Source: Dactylonectria macrodidyma
Taxonomy: Eukaryota > Ascomycota > Sordariomycetes > Hypocreales > Nectriaceae
Direction: 5' to 3'
NCBI GenBank assembly: GCA_020744425.1
Contig: JAGMUV010000031.1
Span: forward strand, 124,001 to 188,000
DNA: 64,000 nucleotides
The notes beneath the pieces are model-generated. The model searched no databases and was not told the origin of the DNA. It worked only from the letters and a program-made list of their open reading frames with translations. Shown here piece by piece: positions 45,373-56,149 of this stretch (position 1 is the first letter of the stretch; each line of letters begins with the position of its first letter). The position numbers were made by a program, and so were the translations under genes.

Positions 45373-48274
45373 TGCTTAATTCTGCAAAACATCAAGAAGC
45401 GTTGCGAACAAAATGGAGATCGTGTCAAGCGAAAAACTCCAAAGTAAACAAACCGGGGGTAATGCCAGCGGTAAAAACTAAGGCCCACTTTTTAAGGGCC
45501 GTCATCCAGTTGCCGAACGTTTTGCGGCCATCCATACAAATTGTTGGCCAATCAGAACCTGGGAAACTTATTGACCCCTGTCTGCACCAAACCCTCATAT
45601 TCGGAAAACTTAAGAACTGATGTAGAGTCAGCCTTCGGCTGAATTAGTCCTCGCCCAAACGACCTCGACGGAATCCTGATCGAACCCGACGAATTCAAGC
45701 TGAATGGGAAGCAATTTGTACGCTACTCTGTTGTGGCAAAGTCCCAAAATCACACCAAGAAAAGGACATCAGTCGTCTGGCAGTATGGTGAAGACATACA
45801 ACTCAAGCAGGACCCGACGAAGAGGTTCTGGTACTGTTTTCTGTGCGAACAGCAGCAGCGCCAACAGGGACTTCCTATTTCCGGCAAGGGCAATTGCACT
45901 GCCTTAGACCACCTGGAATCGAAACACCAAATCGATAGGGAGACTGGTGAGCACAGACATGCAAAGCGCCACCCATCGCAGCCATCAATTGTCGACTTCA
46001 ACAACATATCCACCCTTGTATTCAAACGCCGATTTGACGAGTTCAAGGAACTTCTTATTCGATGGATCGTCTATTGTCACATCGCCTTCTTTCAAATCAA
46101 GAACCTCTACTTTCGCGAACTCCTCTTCTATGTTTTCCCTGGCCTGACAACACTCCTTCCAAAGGCGAGACTAGTGATTCGCAGATGGATAATAGAGGCC
46201 TTTGGGGCACGAAAGGACAGACTGCGTCAAGAAATGCAAGCGGCCCACAGCAATATATCGATATCGTTCGATTTATGGACGTCACCGAACTATCAGGCTA
46301 TCCTTGGATGTGTCGCGCACTTTATCAACAGAAGTGGCAAGAGAAGAACGGTTGTTCTGGCTCTTCGTGAACTGGTTGGCGAACATTCAGGTGAGAATAT
46401 GGCAGATGTCCTCCTGCAAATGTTTGACGACTACGGATAAGTGGCCGGATTGGTTATTTCATGGCAGACAATGCAAGTTCGAATGATGCATGCATCGACC
46501 TGGTCCTGCGGGCTCTTTATCCGAACATGAGCAGGAAACATCGCGTACGACGACGCCTTCGGTGTTTCGGCCATATCGTCAATCTCTGTGCCCAGGCGTT
46601 TATTATGGGAAAGGATGCTGCGAAGACCTGCAAGGATCTGGACTCTGCGTATCGAGAAGGGGACTACACACGGATTCGTGAGCTGTGGAAGAAGCGTGGT
46701 GCAATTGGGAGGCTCCATAATATCGTACGATATATTAGAGCTAGCCCTCAACGGCGCCAATTCTTCAGATCAATTCAAATTGGCGGCGATCTGGCTGCGT
46801 TTGACGGATTGGAGGTAAGCTCCCCTTGTACGCGTCGCAAGGTAGTCGCGGCGCCCTACACTTACGGTTTCAGTACTGACGTTGGAGTTTGTTGCAGCTT
46901 ATCCAAAGTCAGTCTACGCGCTGGAATTCTTATTTCTTATCAATTGGACGCGCTCTTAATGTCAAGGAACGTATCCAGCTCTTCTGCGATCAATATGAGC
47001 CTCCACAAAGTGACAGAGACATCCTGGACCAACGCCTCAGCCCATGGCAATGGGATGAACTCGGACACCTCCACGACCAACTTGAGACATTCTACGAGGC
47101 CACAGTAATGAACGAAGGCAGACAGTGGACTCTTGCAGATCATTTTCAATCGCTGGACTGGCTTATGGACGAAATCCACCTTGCTCGGCGAAAGTTTGAA
47201 CAGCTCGCTGAAGACGCCCTGCGGAAGCGTGGCCCGAATAGACAGGATAAGCAGAACGAATTCGACGACTATAACTGGCTTGCTGCGGCTGCAGAAGTTG
47301 CCTGGCAGAAATGCGAGAAGTACTATAACAAGGCCGATGAGTCGCCCGCTTACTACGCCGCCATATCGTTGAATCCAAGCCTTAAGAACCAATGGTACTA
47401 TCAGGTTTGGAATGGCAGTGATGATAAGCGTGCCTGGATCCAAGCTGCCGTTGGAGCAGTTAAGGAGCTCTGGGTTGACGAATACAAAGGCAGGTTCGCG
47501 CACGGCGCGCTAGTTCCTACCCACGTCTTTAAGGCCCCAGAACCGAAAGAGAAATCGTTTACTTCAGTGAGAAACCACAAGCGTCTCAAACTACGCCACC
47601 TCGACCCTAATTCAAGCCCCGAACTGCCCTCAACCGATCACTACGATGAGTTTATCACCAGTGACGTTATCGGCCTTAATGATGACGAGGAATTCGACCC
47701 CATCCAGTACTGGAATGAGCGTTACCACTCGCAGACGGACCTAGCTCGTATGGCGCTGGACGTTTTAGCCCTGCCTCCCATGTCGGATGAGTGTGAGCGC
47801 CTTTTTAGCAGCGCCAAGCTCCTCCTTACAGATCATCGCTCACGGCTCCGGATGGACGTCATTGAGGCCAGCGAGTGCTTACGAGCTTGGTATGGTCGCC
47901 CGGAGCAGAAGGCATTTGATGACTCTGCCATCGGTTTGATGGAGGGTGAGGCACGGAGTACAGTTAGGGCGGATGGGCCGGGTGAGGGAGAGGAAGGCGG
48001 CGAAGATGATGGAAGTGAGAAGTCGAACATACTGGAGACGCAAGTTGCTATAGAACATGAGCTCCGTAGTTAGGTGGTGTCATAACCCAAGGACAAGAAC
48101 AGTTCTACTCCAAGTCTGCTTATTCAGCGGCTCATTGATTGTCCCAAAAGGGTAAAAATACGAACTGGATCGGTTCTGGATATCCTGGAGGCTGCCCGTC
48201 CCCACGTCTGGACTGGATTGGATCGGGGCTCGGATCCAGCTCCAATCCAATCCAATAACATCACTGCCTGCGAC

Positions 48275-48603: not shown

Positions 48604-48659
48604 GGGGGGACCATATGTGAGGGAACGATCATGTGACTTTCATACTTTATGAATAGTCT

Positions 48660-48800
48660 TACCTCAGCAAGCTCAGACCCTCTGCTCGGGCGGCGGCTAT
48701 GCGCGCTTACTAAAGCACGCTAACCCGAACGGGTAACACCTTCACAGAGGGCCTGAGCCCAATTTCCACATTTTTGGTGGCGTTGTCGTTCGCCGCTTTG
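48660..48800 (+). repeat. Left 141-bp terminal inverted repeat of the RecQ element
   Basis: Exact reverse complement of 53814-53954. It contains GC-rich internal symmetry (CTCTGCTCGGGCGGCGG) and ends CGCCGCTTTG. It lies about 95 bp from the DUF6589 start and may include its promoter. Confidence 0.95.
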
Positions 48801-48893
48801 GAAGCTCTGTACGAAACAGAAACAGCTTAGTGCAACGGCCCTCTGGGGTGTCCCCCCGGGGAGAATAAAAACCTACCTACCTACCTTGTAATC

Positions 48894-51499
48894 ATGCGCG
48901 TTCGTTCTTGCTCAACAGAAAACTTGCATGCGTTTGCAGTCAATTGTCAATTTGTGCCACCATTAATACATCTGCATACCACTCTAGATATGACATTCGA
49001 AGCTTCGTCCACTACGGCCACACCAGAAGGCAGCACGTCTGGCTCTTCGCTGCTGCCACCCGTCAACAACCACCGCAGACGATCACCCCGCTCAGATGCT
49101 GAGAAGCTCGATATTGTATGCAATTTTATGCGAAATGAGCTCCGTTGGGGTGTTGCCGACCTTGTCACGGCATTAGCTTCCTCTGAAGGTTCTAATAATA
49201 CTCGTCGAAAGGCTGCATTCGTAGCAGCGGCCTACAAGGACTCTGAGGTCCTGAAGTCCTACTTTCGCGATGCGGATCAACTGTGGGGTGACGGCAGGCA
49301 GTCTATCATCGAGGCGTTGGATCTGGGCGACAATGAGCTACGGAGAGAGGTGGAAAACCTAGGAACTATACCACCATTTAACAAGTTCGATCCAACCTCC
49401 AAGAATGGAGACTTCGACGCGCTCGACATGGACCAAACCCTAAATACGATACACAATGAGGCACCTCTGTTACTACAGCTTATCAGAGGCATCATGGCTC
49501 CTGAATCCCGGCGGAAGTATCAGCGCCAAAAAGAACCAGCTGCTCGAATTGTCGCCATCATATCAATCCTCTGCTTCTCGCAGCGCCAAAACACCTGTAC
49601 CGGCTTTCAGACGAACCTAGGCCTCTACCTCCATTCTCAAGGTGTGAAGCGTCAACAGCTAGAGCTCCTCGGTCAACTCGGACTTGTCGTCAGTTACAAC
49701 ACCGTCATCCGAGCCATCAAAGAACAATCAACTCGGGCTGCGGCACGAGTAGAGGGTATGGGGCAGAGTGACGAGGCCGTGACGTCGTACGATAATTTCG
49801 AGGTAATGGAAGGCGTCAAGGAGCAGCGGGTTGATCATCAAGGTACCTTCCATTCTGTGACGACGGGCCAGGTCATTCAAGGCATTGAAATACCGCCTGG
49901 TGGACTGCGACAAGATATGCTTGATTCTCAGGCGGAAATATGCGCCAGTGACGTCTTCCTGGCCCCCGGGAATCGGGATGACGGTATTAATCGTCAGGTA
50001 TGTATTGATCCATCATGCCCATGGCTTGGTGTTGAACCGTCTCGCAGTAGATATCACGATACTTTTCCTACGAAGCTATCAACACGATCTTCTCGAACGC
50101 CATCCCGGACGCTGCAAAGAAGCAACGTCCAGCAATGCCCGTTGTCGATGTTCTCGAACCTGTCAAGACTGTCCATTGCTCCCTTGGTCCTATTCCTCAT
50201 GACGAGAGCAGTAATGCTGGCAATATCCTGATTCTTGAGAATATCTTTCAACATCAATATCACCTACCCGATTCCGCCTTTGAGCATCGTTTATTCCTCA
50301 TCTACGGTGACCAGAAGACCACGCAGCGGATTCGTTCGATCAAGCAACGCAGGGAAGAAGCTCAGCGGCCTTGCGACAGGCTACAATGGGCGCTGCCAGT
50401 ACCGGCGCTCTTCCACCTCCGTATGAACTACCTCTACATGATATCCAGACTCCACTTTGGCGGTCCTGGCAGCGATCAATCCACGTTATATGACGCCATG
50501 AACTTCTGGACAAGGAAAAGGATCTGCAAATCCAGCGCTGATTTCTACGCCCTAGAGCAGCTGATCATCCATAGTTTCCAGGCTAGAGTGTGCGCTTTGC
50601 TCTGGAATATGCTTGCTCAGTCTGGGCAGGGGATTGGCCTCGAGTTCGAAGACATCGCTCGAATGCTGGCTATTCACGATGCTGGAACCTTCTCACAACT
50701 CTTGGATAGGATCGTCGATTCTTACGGCAAGTATGCCCGCTCGACTGATGACGAGGAGCTTCGGAACCACATCCTGTTCTTGCAGCACACTCAGACCTAC
50801 CTGCTTCTGAAGTATTCAATCAAGCATGCCGATCTCGGCCTCTTGCGCCGAGCCATTGACCGCTGTTGTGTGTATTTCCATGGCTCAGGGCAATCGAGAT
50901 ATGCGTTTGAGATGCTGTACCTTCAGCGTCTCACGTCAACGCGTGCTGCCACCCCGGAATTACAACGCGCGATACTTGCAAACGGGCTTGTAAATCGCCA
51001 GGGCAAGGCGGATAGCTGGTATGAGACAGACAGGCTCGTGGAATTCCACAATGGCACTCTCAGGAAGCTACTCAACGCCAAACGTGGATCTTCTCTTACG
51101 CTGGATTATCTCTTCGAGCACTGTGCTCTAAATACCGACTTCTTTGCCACTCTTGCCAAGCAGACAGAATCCTTTTACGGCATTCATCGGAGTAGCAAAC
51201 ATCCAGAGAAATCAGCGGAACGTGACATTAGGGTGATGGCTCAACGCTTATCGCACAGCGGGTCAATTGCTCTGCACAGTGGACGGACGGTTAAGCATAA
51301 AGCTACTGATGTGTTGGCAGAAGGGGCAATGTGCATTGCCGGCAAATCGATAGCCAAGTTCAACAGAATGGCATGCAGCGTCGACTATGATTACTTGGAA
51401 GGAGACGAAGATGAACTGGGCGATGGACAGGAAGACGAAGATGAAATCGACGAGGAACTTGGCCATTTTTTTGCAGTTTATCATGCCGATGAGGAGTAG
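48894..51499 (+). CDS. DUF6589-type protein, candidate recombinase of the RecQ element (850 aa)
   Basis: Exon 1 (48894-49997) and exon 2 (50051-51499) join over a 53-bp intron ending in CAGTAG; the sum is 2553 nt. ATG 48990 is an alternative start. Residues ~60-300 are helical with no known motif. Then come SYDNFEVMEGVKEQRVD (~300), a GDQKTTQRIRS block (~453), a helical region with FHLRMNYLYMISRLHFGG, and a C-terminal part with EHCALNTDFFATLAKQTESFYG. The tail is strongly acidic. These blocks recall the fungal DUF6589 family, recognised by eye. The paired Asp motifs would fit an RNase H-like nuclease, but that is inference. The frame is intact. Confidence 0.75.
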
Positions 51500-51709
51500 A
51501 AGGGACTGATGTCTCCTGATTTATCTATCGAGTTTGAGCTTTCGGAGCGTTGCTTGAAGGCATGCGTCCTGTGTCACCTCGAGGACCTCCTTGCCGTACG
51601 CAGCTAGATCACCCCATTCCCCGTTGACTGCGTGTGCTAATGAACCAATAGAAGTAACCGCTGCACCCGTTCTTGATATCATGTTTACAGCTTTATCTGG
51701 AAGGATAAG

Positions 51710-53484
51710 CTAAGCTGGTGCAGCTGTGATAAAGGTCGGAAATAAGGTGCATGCCGCCTTTGCATCTCGCCACTCGACCAAAGCCAACTTCACCGCTTCG
51801 GTGATGTGCTTTTGAGATTGAACGATCCTGACAGGCCTCCCAGCCTTGCTGGAAGGTATCTTGACGTCGTCCCCTGCGCATTTGCTACAGCAAGAAACTG
51901 CCTCTGTCGGACGAGTGCATAATGCGCGGTTTTCGCCGAAGAACCTGAGTATGCCTCGCCGGATGCAAGTTGAACGATTGATTAATTCCCATATGCCTCG
52001 TGGTAAGACGGATCGCTTCTCGCGCTCCGTCATCCCCTTTTTGAAGGATCGAAGCGGCAAGTGTTCCATACTCTCCCCAAAACACCAGGCAGGAACTAAC
52101 CAGACGAACTTACCGCAGATTGCCTTACCCCGTGCAGCTCGGCCGGCACGCTGCAATAAAGCCCCCATGCTGGGTGGGACCCCCCACTGAACGACGAGTC
52201 GGATATCTGGATTATCAATACCCATTCCCATGGCATCTGTGGCGACGATGATGCGATGCATTGAGCTATCCAAGGCGCTCTCTGTGTCAGGCTTTTCGAA
52301 CTCTGTGGATATACGCCTCTTATCAGGTTCTGCAAGCTGTGAATGATATGCCTGGACGGCATTGATGGCTGCCGTCTTTGAACAGCCTGCCCGAACGAGT
52401 AGCGTTCTCAGTGCCCCGACCACCTTCATGATCCGCGTTATCGAGTCGACATAGACTATGGTCTTCTGAATTGTCTTGCAACAGGCACGACTGTCAGATC
52501 CTGCTCCCATCCGTTGATGTCGAGTCCTTGTTAAGAGTGCTTGAGCAGCAGCTATACCGGCGCTTTTGAATGCCTCTCTTGCCATGCTCTCCCTTCTCTC
52601 CTTAACAGCCTGCTCAATTGCCGCCTGCACCGGTTTAACAAGGAACTCTAGATCGCGGAAACCGTCCATCCGATACTGAAATGCCTGAATTTCGAATGTT
52701 ATGTTGGGTCTGTCAATGGAGGTTCGTTGAATGCGAACGGAAGGGTCGAATCCGCTGAGATCTCGAACCTCAGCCAGCGTAACTGGATCAAGCGTCGCAG
52801 AACATCCCAGCCAAGGCACAGACCTACTGATCAGATCTCGCAGCAAAGCCAATCCGCTGTATGAACTCCTCCAACGCAGACCCCACTCGCTGACCACGTG
52901 TAATTCGTCGATAGCCACCAATACGAGATGATCTTGAAAGGCCTGGTCGTATAGGACCTCCGTCTTGAACCTCTCTGACAATGCAATTTCTGGACTCAAA
53001 AGCACTGGGCCCCTCTGTTCAGCCGTGATGTTCGGTTGGCAACTGTCGACATGGAAGTCCTACCGTGCGTGTATTTGCCGATTCGGATCTCATTAAGCAA
53101 CGCGGCTTTATTTGACTGGCCGTTTAATACGCAAGGCCTGCAGTTGGGTATTCGAGCAATGGACTTGGCCTGCGGTGAAGATCAGTTATTTCATTGTTTT
53201 CCCATAATTGTCTATGTGTCTCGCCACCGACTAACCTGGTCCTCTTCAAGCAGATTCAAGGGCATAATCATGAGACAAATGCCGCCTCGCAAGGCCGGAA
53301 TAGCTTGGAATACGGCACTCTTGCCCCATCCGGTAGGTGCAATCAGGATTAGGTCCTGCTGGTCGACAGCGAGTCTTCGTATTGCTTCTACCTGGCCGTC
53401 CCGGGGAGGGAAGTTGAGGAGGTTTGCCAATGTCGAGGGCAATGACTCAGGATCAGGGCAACACAATGGGGTATGTAGCATCAC
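51710..53484 (-). CDS. RecQ-family DNA helicase of the two-gene element (549 aa)
   Basis: The exons are 53484-53236, 53169-53064 and 53004-51710 (1650 nt). Motifs are in order: motif I TGWGKS (residues 51-56), motif II DELHVVSEWG (151-160), motif III GCSAT, motif V DAMGMGIDNPDI, motif VI QRAGRAARG. A RecQ-type zinc-binding segment follows (CIRRGILRFFGE...CCSKC). Motif II is DELH rather than the usual DEAH. HRDC and N-terminal extensions are absent, so it is compact. It would unwind DNA 3'-5' and could prepare or resolve transposition intermediates. It converges on the DUF6589 gene and has no frame damage. Confidence 0.87.
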
Positions 53485-53813
53485 GATCAGTAGCGGAGAT
53501 TTCTATGTATCCCCAACTATAATTTTCAAGAATAATTGAGGGCATCTTTGCTGTTGTCATGGAACGGGCTGGGCCGTTGATATATATTCGGCTAATGTCG
53601 ATACCCTCGACGCCACTAAATGAAGGCAAAGCTCTGCGCAACCCCTGAGCTCGAGTATGTAGCTAGGTAGGCAGCTCCACGCGAGCAACTTGTTGGTTTC
53701 CAAGCACGCTTCTGGCTGAATAAGCCCCGTGCCCCTTTCATGTCAGGCGTACGAGTAATCAGTCGATGAAACAGATGTTGAAGATGGCGAATGATACTGC
53801 GTTTCGCAAATTA

Positions 53814-53954
53814 CAAAGCGGCGAACGACAACGCCACCAAAAATGTGGAAATTGGGCTCAGGCCCTCTGTGAAGGTGTTACCCGTTCGGGTTAGCGTGCT
53901 TTAGTAAGCGCGCATAGCCGCCGCCCGAGCAGAGGGTCTGAGCTTGCTGAGGTA
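53814..53954 (-). repeat. Right 141-bp terminal inverted repeat of the RecQ element
   Basis: Exact reverse complement of 48660-48800, followed directly by the target duplication. It lies about 330 bp upstream of the helicase ATG. Confidence 0.95.
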
Positions 53955-54048
53955 ATGAATAGTCTCATTTAACTTATGAACATTTGTGTAAATAGCTTAA
54001 GTCAGAGTTTTCCTTAGGAATCTCTTTCTCTCCTCGTAAACAATCATT

Positions 54049-56149
54049 TTGCCCAAGTCGCACTCGACCTCGTTCGCGCTCTTGTCCCGTCACAGAGTGC
54101 CTGGGTGGACCATTTCTAGACGACTGTCCGGTCATGCGAGCAGGAATGAACGTATCCAGGCCCACCAGCGCATTTCAAAGACCCAGGAGGAGACCCTCGT
54201 TCGTTGGGTGCTGCGACAAGAGTCTCTGGGCTATGCTCTCTCGCACAGCCAGCTCCACGCCTGTGTCGAGGCCATCCTTCAACAACAGGGCGATAACAAG
54301 CCTCTGGGCAAGCACTGGACCACCAGGTTCGTCAAACGTCACCAACAACTATCTACATAGCTTGGAAAACGTCAGGAAGCCGCCAGATTTGACGGGTTTA
54401 CACCAAAGGCGGTCAATTGGTACTTCGATATCCGGGAAAACGAGTACGGCTGGATCAAGCCTGAGAACACGGTTAACGTGGACGAGGGCGGCATAATGGC
54501 GGGTTTCGGTAAGTCCTCTACAAGTTCTCTACGGGTTTTTATAGGGTATAACTAATTGGTTGTCCATAAGGCTTGGACAGTCTCGTAATCGGGAGCTCCG
54601 ACCCGAAGAAGAAGGCGTTGTTAAAAGGCGTCCAGTCGCGTAACTGGACCTCGTTTATTGAGGCTGTCACCACAACTGGCCGTGCTTTGAAACCGGGAAT
54701 TATCTTTAAAGGAAAAGAGCTGCAGAAGCAGTGGTTTCTTAACGAATTCGAATTGATAGCAGACTGGCACTACATCACATCCCCGAACGGCTGGACCGAC
54801 AACCATATAGCTCTCGAGTGGTTGAAGGACGTTTATCTACCTCAAACGGAGCCTCGTGATACATCGGATGCGAGACTTATTATCCTTGACGGTCACGGGA
54901 GCCATGCGCAGGTGAGCCTTTCGGTGTTTCCGCCGCGGAGTCACCCGCTATAGGGTCGCTAACGAGCAGTCAGGACGAGTGGATGGCGATGTGCTTTCTG
55001 AACAATGTCTACTGCTGTTACCTACCAGCACATTGTTCCCATGGTTTGCAACCGTTAGATAATAGAATTTTTATTGTCCTTAAAGGCGCGTATCGGAAAG
55101 AACTCCAAAAGCTAGCTAGTTTGACCGATTCTACGCCGGTTGACAAAGCCAACTTTATTCGAGCATACGCGAAAGCCAGGGAAGCGGGCATGAGGAAGGA
55201 TACTATCTTATCCGGCTGGAGGTTTACTGGAAATTGGCCTATCAACCGTCACAAAGCTCTAACACATCCGGAAATTCAACCGGACAAAGAAAAAATACTG
55301 GAACGGTTCCAGACGCCGAGCCCTCCTCAACTGCACTCAGGTGATACGCCGAAAACGAGCCGCCAGGTGAGAGATATGGCCAAAAATAGAAGTCGTCCGA
55401 CCAGGCGGAAGTACAGTAAGATCGCGAAGGGGCTGGAAGCTTTAGAGATGAAGGTCGCCGTTCAGAACAGTGTGGCTAACAGACCGACCGTCTGACAGAC
55501 CGTCTGACAGACCATCTTCAGACCGCAGACCGACCGACCGGCAATTGTCATCAGACCGACAGACCGGAGCTGCTGGTCTGAGTTGGTCTGGGTTAGGGGT
55601 TTCCAGGGCTCCCATTGGCCGACTCAGCCTTAACGCACCCGTACCACCCCCACTCTTTTTGCGGGTGCGAGTTCGTAGTGGCAAATTAAGTGGGGCATGG
55701 CAAGGGTAGCCAATGAGGGCATCAGATAATCAGACCTAGACCGACCAGGTTGCTAACCCAGACAGACCTAGACCGGGAGCCTCGACAAACCCAGACCGAC
55801 AGACCGAAGGGGCCGGTCTGGGTCGGTCGGTCTGTTAGCCACACTGGTTCAGAATGCGCGGATTACTGGCCTCGAGGAGCAGATGGCCCATCTGCGGCGA
55901 GGGAAGAAAAGAAAGGCGGTACCAAACCCGAACCGACGATTCATGGCTCTAGCTGAGACTCTAGCGGCTGGAGAAGCTCTTCCAAACTCAAAGGAGGCTG
56001 AAATAGAGGTGGACGTGGATGAGGAGGTCGAGTCGGTGATTGAGGTGGGTGTCAGGTCAGAGGACGAAAGTGAGGACTTTATGGTGGTAACAAAGCACTG
56101 CCAGCGCACACGCAGCGGTCGGGAGGTCAAAAAACCACGCAGAGAGTAA
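54049..56149 (+). pseudogene. Decayed Fot1-like transposase, split by a MITE
   Basis: Related to the 31.7-33.4 kb protein. The N-terminal ~20 residues are missing at the chromovirus junction. It has HTH regions (RHRVPGWTISRRLSG, GKHWTTRFVKRH), then a TAG at 54358-54360, then VNVDEGGIMAG, an intron (about 54509-54569), LIILDGHGSHAQ, a second intron (about 54912-54970), and GLQPLDNRIF. At 55468 a 379-bp MITE interrupts the C-terminal coil, and the frame resumes at 55855 and ends at 56149. The internal stop and missing start make it non-functional. The right end of its element probably lies near 56265-56300 (repeated GTGCATTAGGTGG); the left end is lost. Confidence 0.8.
55468..55846. mobile_element. 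379-bp MITE rich in CAGACCGACC repeats
   Basis: The ends are inverted (CAGTGTGGCTAACAGACC) and flanked by identical 8-bp duplications GTTCAGAA (55460-55467 and 55847-55854), as for hAT. Both halves carry irregular arrays of AGACCGAC/GTCTGACAG units, in opposite orientation on the two sides. Its insertion in the transposase is precise: one duplication copy plus the element accounts for the whole interruption. Confidence 0.92.

What the first reader, a model, noticed from the sequence alone, without database searches (positions are those of the whole stretch)
48649..53965. A DNA transposon-like unit made only of a DUF6589 protein and a RecQ helicase
The unit has perfectly identical 141-bp inverted repeats, a 9-11 bp target duplication (TGAATAGTC or ATGAATAGTCT depending on one ambiguous base per end), and two intact convergent genes. 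No classical transposase is encoded. Long inverted repeats plus a 9-bp-class duplication recall Mutator, but no MULE transposase motifs are visible. The parsimonious reading is that the DUF6589 protein is the recombinase, with conserved YDN and GDQ blocks as possible acidic catalytic sites, and that RecQ assists. A helicase-assisted cut-and-paste or replicative element of this composition would be a new kind of eukaryotic mobile element.
Basis: partly seen in the sequence, partly recalled or inferred. Interest (0 to 1): 0.96.

Follow-up and report, generated by a model that had tools for sequence, protein, structure and literature searches.

The report
AcademH-like transposon with DUF6589 transposase
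This 5.3-kb stretch of fungal DNA is a transposon with 142-bp inverted ends and a 9-bp target duplication; its DUF6589 protein is predicted to be a DDE transposase, a RecQ helicase gene lies beside it, and it is likely a member of the already described AcademH kind rather than a new kind of mobile element.

Summary
The unit runs from 48659 (TTACC) to 53955 (GGTAA), 5297 bp, with 142 bp of perfect terminal inverted repeat and TGAATAGTC on both sides. A paralogous copy of the flanks holds that 9-mer once (empty site). The genome (77 Mb, fungal; closest named protein from Ilyonectria destructans) holds a second copy with one difference in 5297 bases and its own 9-bp duplication, older relatives, and short copies without genes. 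Of 17 units whose ends I paired, 14 have exact 8- or 9-bp duplications. All 14 near-complete DUF6589 loci found carry a convergent RecQ. But it looks like a classical RNase H-fold transposase, and a helicase-carrying, 9/10-bp-duplicating DNA transposon of fungi and animals is already described: AcademH (passage of PMC10045372). The AcademH paper and sequences were not held, so homology to Academ was not tested. RecQ in this copy ends 63 codons early. Verdict: new member of a known kind.

The parts
48650..48658 (.). left copy of the 9-bp target site duplication TGAATAGTC
   Evidence: single copy in the empty site L059
48659..48800 (+). left terminal inverted repeat, 142 bp perfect, starts TTACCTCAG
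48672..48757 (.). subterminal inverted repeat inside the left end: outer box CTCAGACCCTCTG at 48672-48684, inner inverted box CAGAGGGCCTGAG at 48745-48757; mirrored in the right end
   Evidence: outer and inner boxes co-vary across 13 distinct ends, 0 of 5000 permutations reach the observed score
48990..49997 (+). DUF6589 gene, predicted exon 1 (with YDN, D268)
   Evidence: gene model by comparison with P0001
49998..50050 (+). predicted intron of the DUF6589 gene, GTATGT...TAG
   Evidence: splice agrees with the annotated protein P0001
50051..51499 (+). DUF6589 gene, predicted exon 2 (GDQ, D423; ETDRLVEFHN, E667), stop included
   Evidence: Pfam PF20231 238 bits
51710..53004 (-). RecQ gene, last predicted exon; frame ends early in this copy
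53064..53169 (-). RecQ gene, middle predicted exon
53236..53481 (-). RecQ gene, first predicted exon (Walker A APTGWGKS)
   Evidence: Pfam DEAD; start codon not certain
53814..53955 (-). right terminal inverted repeat, 142 bp perfect, ends CTGAGGTAA
53956..53964 (.). right copy of the target site duplication TGAATAGTC

Best explanation
The unit is a DNA transposon of 5297 bp, likely of the AcademH kind, whose DUF6589 protein is predicted to be a DDE transposase that would cut the element out at its TTACC...GGTAA ends and join it to staggered cuts 8-9 bp apart in the target. Shown: the ends, the duplications, an empty site, the near-identical second copy, short copies with the same ends, and RecQ beside every near-complete DUF6589 locus found in this genome. 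Predicted: the RNase H fold and the D268-D423-E667 active site of DUF6589. Inferred: that transposition is cut-and-paste, that the inverted CTCAGGCC boxes inside each end are transposase binding sites, and that RecQ helps by unwinding the ends or the gap-repair intermediates.
Confidence: 0.8

Rival explanations
1. A separate, undescribed DDE superfamily: DUF6589 transposons with a steady RecQ partner that resemble AcademH in plan only (convergent gain of a helicase).
For: No paper in the library holds 'DUF6589' and the only 'PF20231' hit is unrelated; 8-bp duplications in 6 of 14 units fall outside the reported 9/10; helicases are reported in more than one DNA transposon lineage (KolobokH; AcademH).
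Against: Helicase, fungal host, DDE-type enzyme and 9-bp-class duplication all coincide with AcademH; Pfam names need not appear in papers on transposon families.
Confidence: 0.12
2. A KolobokH element (fungal Kolobok lineage with RecQ).
For: KolobokH carries RecQ and is reported only from fungi (passage of PMC9587614); in Cladobotryum mycophilum, elements called KolobokH hold RecQ-like genes and an uncharacterised gene near telomeres (passage of PMC10989895).
Against: Kolobok makes TTAA duplications and has 5'-RR / YY-3' termini (passage of PMC9587614); here duplications are 8-9 bp of varied sequence and termini are TT...AA. The two invariant histidines of DUF6589, in ALFH and LRNH, do not lie in the C/DxxH motif that the same passage gives for Kolobok, hAT, P, MuDR and Dada.
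Confidence: 0.03
3. A passive composite: DUF6589 and RecQ are passengers moved by another element's transposase that recognises these ends.
For: Short copies without genes have the same ends and duplications, so trans-mobilisation is likely in the family.
Against: Each of the 14 near-complete DUF6589 loci has the pair, both genes are under purifying selection, no other transposase was found inside the unit, and DUF6589 has a predicted transposase fold.
Confidence: 0.05

Closest known systems
AcademH (Academ superfamily; Kojima 2020, Mob DNA 11:15, not held here; known to me from passages in PMC10045372 and PMC10799480, its title in reference lists, and recall)
   Same: DNA transposon found in fungi, with a helicase beside the transposase and 9-bp-class target duplications.
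   Different: Duplications here are 8 or 9 bp rather than 9 or 10; sequence relation to Academ not tested; gene order and helicase type of AcademH were not checked.
KolobokH
   Same: Fungal DNA transposon with a RecQ helicase (PMC9587614, passages).
   Different: Kolobok makes TTAA duplications and has 5'-RR termini (PMC9587614, passages); here 8-9 bp and TTACC.
P element and hAT (Hermes) transposases
   Same: [quoted passage not shown] 8-bp duplications (recalled).
   Different: About 12% identity or lower in the structural alignments; no Pfam hAT domain; no helicase gene in those elements (recalled).
Mutator-like elements
   Same: Long inverted repeats and 8-11-bp duplications (recalled).
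   Different: No MULE domain reported by Pfam for the unit's proteins.

Membership tests
AcademH | encodes a helicase beside the transposase | tested here: met
   DEAD + Helicase_C, RecQ-family matches in PDB sequence search, 14 of 14 near-complete DUF6589 loci
AcademH | DDE-type transposase | tested here: met
   by prediction only: AF2 models and structural matches, D-D-E conservation
AcademH | 9- or 10-bp target duplications | tested here: inconclusive
   this unit 9 bp; of 14 units with an exact duplication 8 have 9 bp and 6 have 8 bp, none 10
AcademH | sequence homology to Academ transposases | not testable with these tools
   no Academ sequences held; paper not held
AcademH | occurs in fungi | tested here: met
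   77-Mb genome; closest named DUF6589 protein is from Ilyonectria destructans, 98%
KolobokH | TTAA target duplication | tested here: not met
   rule from PMC9587614; here 8-9-bp duplications of varied sequence
KolobokH | 5'-RR and YY-3' termini | tested here: not met
   rule from PMC9587614; here TTACC...GGTAA
[quoted passage not shown]
   RecQ lies 3' of DUF6589 but as a separate gene on the other strand
Mutator (MULE) | MULE transposase domain | tested here: not met
   Pfam scans list no MULE domain for the unit's frames or for homologues P0001, P0105, P0114
Mutator (MULE) | long inverted repeats with 9-bp-class duplication (recalled) | tested here: met
   142-bp repeats, 9-bp duplication
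hAT | hAT C-terminal dimerisation domain | tested here: not met
   found in the neighbouring hAT at 46889-48073 but not in the DUF6589 proteins

The most novel reading that the evidence does not exclude
DUF6589 transposons are a DDE superfamily of their own in which a two-component machine, a P-element-like transposase and a RecQ helicase, acts on ends that each carry two inverted, co-varying recognition boxes, so that helicase action on the ends is an obligatory step of transposition.
Probability: 0.12. Interest if true: 0.7.

Novelty: new member of a known kind. Interest (0 to 1): 0.36.

Why it matters
It gives a Pfam family of unknown function a predicted job: an RNase H-fold DDE transposase, whose first catalytic D lies outside the Pfam model. 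It also supplies a family with signs of recent movement (two copies one base apart, an empty site) in which the role of a transposon-borne RecQ helicase could be tested directly.

Tried and rejected
Mutator: rejected, no MULE domain. KolobokH: rejected on duplications and termini. Chance repeat or assembly artefact: rejected by other copies and the empty site. RIP-degraded fossil: not favoured; TA/AT is 0.53-0.63 and (CA+TG)/(AC+GT) 1.28-1.53 in the seven gene-bearing units computed, not RIP-like by the usual thresholds (recalled), and the exons used for dN/dS have no stops inside. DUF6589 by sequence against solved structures: no relative (best E 1.8). Viral structure library: nothing significant. 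Literature: 'DUF6589' 0 papers; 'PF20231' 1 unrelated paper; RecQ plus transposon searches and passages of three of those papers showed subtelomeric or telomere-linked RecQ genes, not this element; searches for Academ terms gave no held paper with Academ sequences or catalytic motif that I saw. In one search the window's RecQ was read out of frame; those rows were discarded and redone. Pairs with saturated synonymous change (window against L050 and L053) were not used. Eight partial DUF6589 matches (L042-L049) were not followed to wider flanks; no RecQ hit lies within the 1.5 kb or so fetched around them. Ends that I could not pair (in L011-L013, L016, L017, L019, L021, L023, L026, L052, L055, L056, and extra ends in L014, L022 and L053) are outside the count of 17.
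Full report
What is there. The window is C25:124001-188000 of a 77.3-Mb genome in 77 contigs. The closest named DUF6589 protein, 98% identical, is from Ilyonectria destructans, so the host is most likely that fungus or a near relative (inference). The unit starts at 48659 with TTACCTCAG and ends at 53955 with CTGAGGTAA. Its two ends are identical over 142 bp (145 nt at 99%). TGAATAGTC stands at 48650-48658 and again at 53956-53964.

Target site. The flanks are repeated in the genome and probably belong to the end of the neighbouring hAT element (inference). Locus L059 carries the same flanks uninterrupted, with TGAATAGTC once...CTTTATGAATAGTCTCATTT.... A short insertion inside the truncated copy at C28 shows the same uninterrupted sequence. 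For this site alone the duplication could be read as 9 to 11 bp. The other copies settle it, because their exact duplications abut TTAC[CG]TCAG...CTGAGGTAA.

The family. The end sequence has 33 matches in the genome, a lower bound. I fetched 19 stretches around them and further DUF6589 loci. I paired ends into 17 units: 14 have an exact duplication of 9 bp (8 units) or 8 bp (6 units); one (the outer unit of L025) has 8 bp with one mismatch; two (L054, L018) have none. Of the 14, six carry both genes (window, L010, L009, L050, L051, L053) and eight are short units of 173 to 481 bp without them. L009 and the short unit beside it share one duplication copy, so they are not fully independent. Ends without a partner in the fetched DNA are not counted. 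The second copy at C25:327051-332347 differs from this one at one base in 5297 and sits at GGTGAAAAG. The relatives at C25:22398 and C25:278561 are about 83% identical over the gene part.

DUF6589 and RecQ together. PF20231 has 22 matches in the genome, a lower bound. Fourteen span at least 350 of 410 profile positions. In 14 of 14 a RecQ relative lies beside it in convergent orientation. The other eight are partial; none has a RecQ hit within the roughly 1.5 kb fetched on each side, and they were not followed further. Both genes are under purifying selection over the exons compared: window against L009, L013 and L051 gives dN/dS 0.13-0.15 for DUF6589 and 0.20-0.32 for RecQ; L009-L051 0.15 and 0.21, L050-L052 0.10 and 0.14, L053-L054 0.09 and 0.11. 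The close pair L009-L013 gives 0.46 for RecQ from few changes and no usable value for DUF6589; window against L050 and L053 is saturated. So RecQ is unlikely to be a chance passenger.

The genes of this copy. The DUF6589 gene model has one 53-bp intron and 818 codons. Its splice agrees with the annotated protein P0001. The RecQ model has three exons and 548 codons; its start is uncertain. Its frame ends 63 codons earlier than in L010, the near-identical copy, by a one-base difference; L009, L013 and L051 continue past that point with similar sequence, and L050 and L052 also read on. So RecQ of this particular copy is probably truncated at its C-terminus.

The ends. Inside each end a box like CTCAGRCC stands near base 14 and again, inverted, ending at base 74-104. 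I tested 24 ends of 12 of the 15 units listed (L010, L015 and L020 were left out); in 23 both boxes were found, 13 of them distinct, some only slightly. The bases next to the boxes change together: observed mean match score 4.38 against 2.32 (sd 0.38) for permuted partners, 0 of 5000 permutations reaching it. Relatedness of the ends inflates this test. I read the boxes as paired binding sites that track the specificity of each transposase; a hairpin is the alternative.

Mechanism. Shown: copies at different sites, end sequence, target duplication, empty site and partner gene. Predicted: DDE chemistry by DUF6589. Inferred: cut-and-paste, since excision was not seen; the helicase would unwind ends or repair intermediates.

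Comparison with the known. A passage of PMC10045372 states that AcademH makes 9- or 10-bp duplications and AcademX 3 or 4, seemingly related to their helicase and nuclease. A passage of PMC10799480 states that AcademH occurs as low-copy elements in Basidiomycota, Ascomycota and Mucoromycota. The title of the source paper (Kojima 2020), seen in reference lists, says helicase, animals and fungi; the paper itself was not held. Passages of PMC9587614 describe KolobokH with RecQ in fungi and Kolobok with TTAA duplications and 5'-RR termini. The plan of the present unit fits AcademH in the features I could test, except that duplications are 8 or 9 rather than 9 or 10 bp. Homology to Academ transposases could not be tested. 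I therefore call it a likely AcademH member, not a proven one.

Verdict. It is most likely a member of a kind described in 2020. What is added here is the predicted DDE fold and active site of DUF6589, the link to RecQ across one genome, and the co-varying boxes in the ends.

Noticed in passing
46461-48073: A hAT transposase gene (Dimer_Tnp_hAT) lies just left of the unit; the unit probably sits inside the repeated terminal part of this hAT element, since its flanks recur in the genome.
   Followed up: partly
54049-55495: A pogo/Fot1-like transposase (HTH_Tnp_Tc5 and DDE_1, split over three open frames) lies just right of the unit.
   Followed up: no
L012:1768-2850 (C28:561567 onward): A truncated copy of the unit is itself interrupted by a short insertion that holds the same sequence as the window unit's flanks, so the two element families have inserted into each other.
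   Followed up: partly
L009:1899-7624: A full unit and a short unit stand side by side with three copies of GATCAAGT, as if the second inserted into the duplication of the first.
   Followed up: partly
L014:1092-1534 and L015:987-1429: Short units whose two ends come from two different subfamilies of ends, hinting that mixed ends can be mobilised.
   Followed up: no
51710-53004: RecQ frame of this copy ends 63 codons before that of the near-identical second copy.
   Followed up: yes
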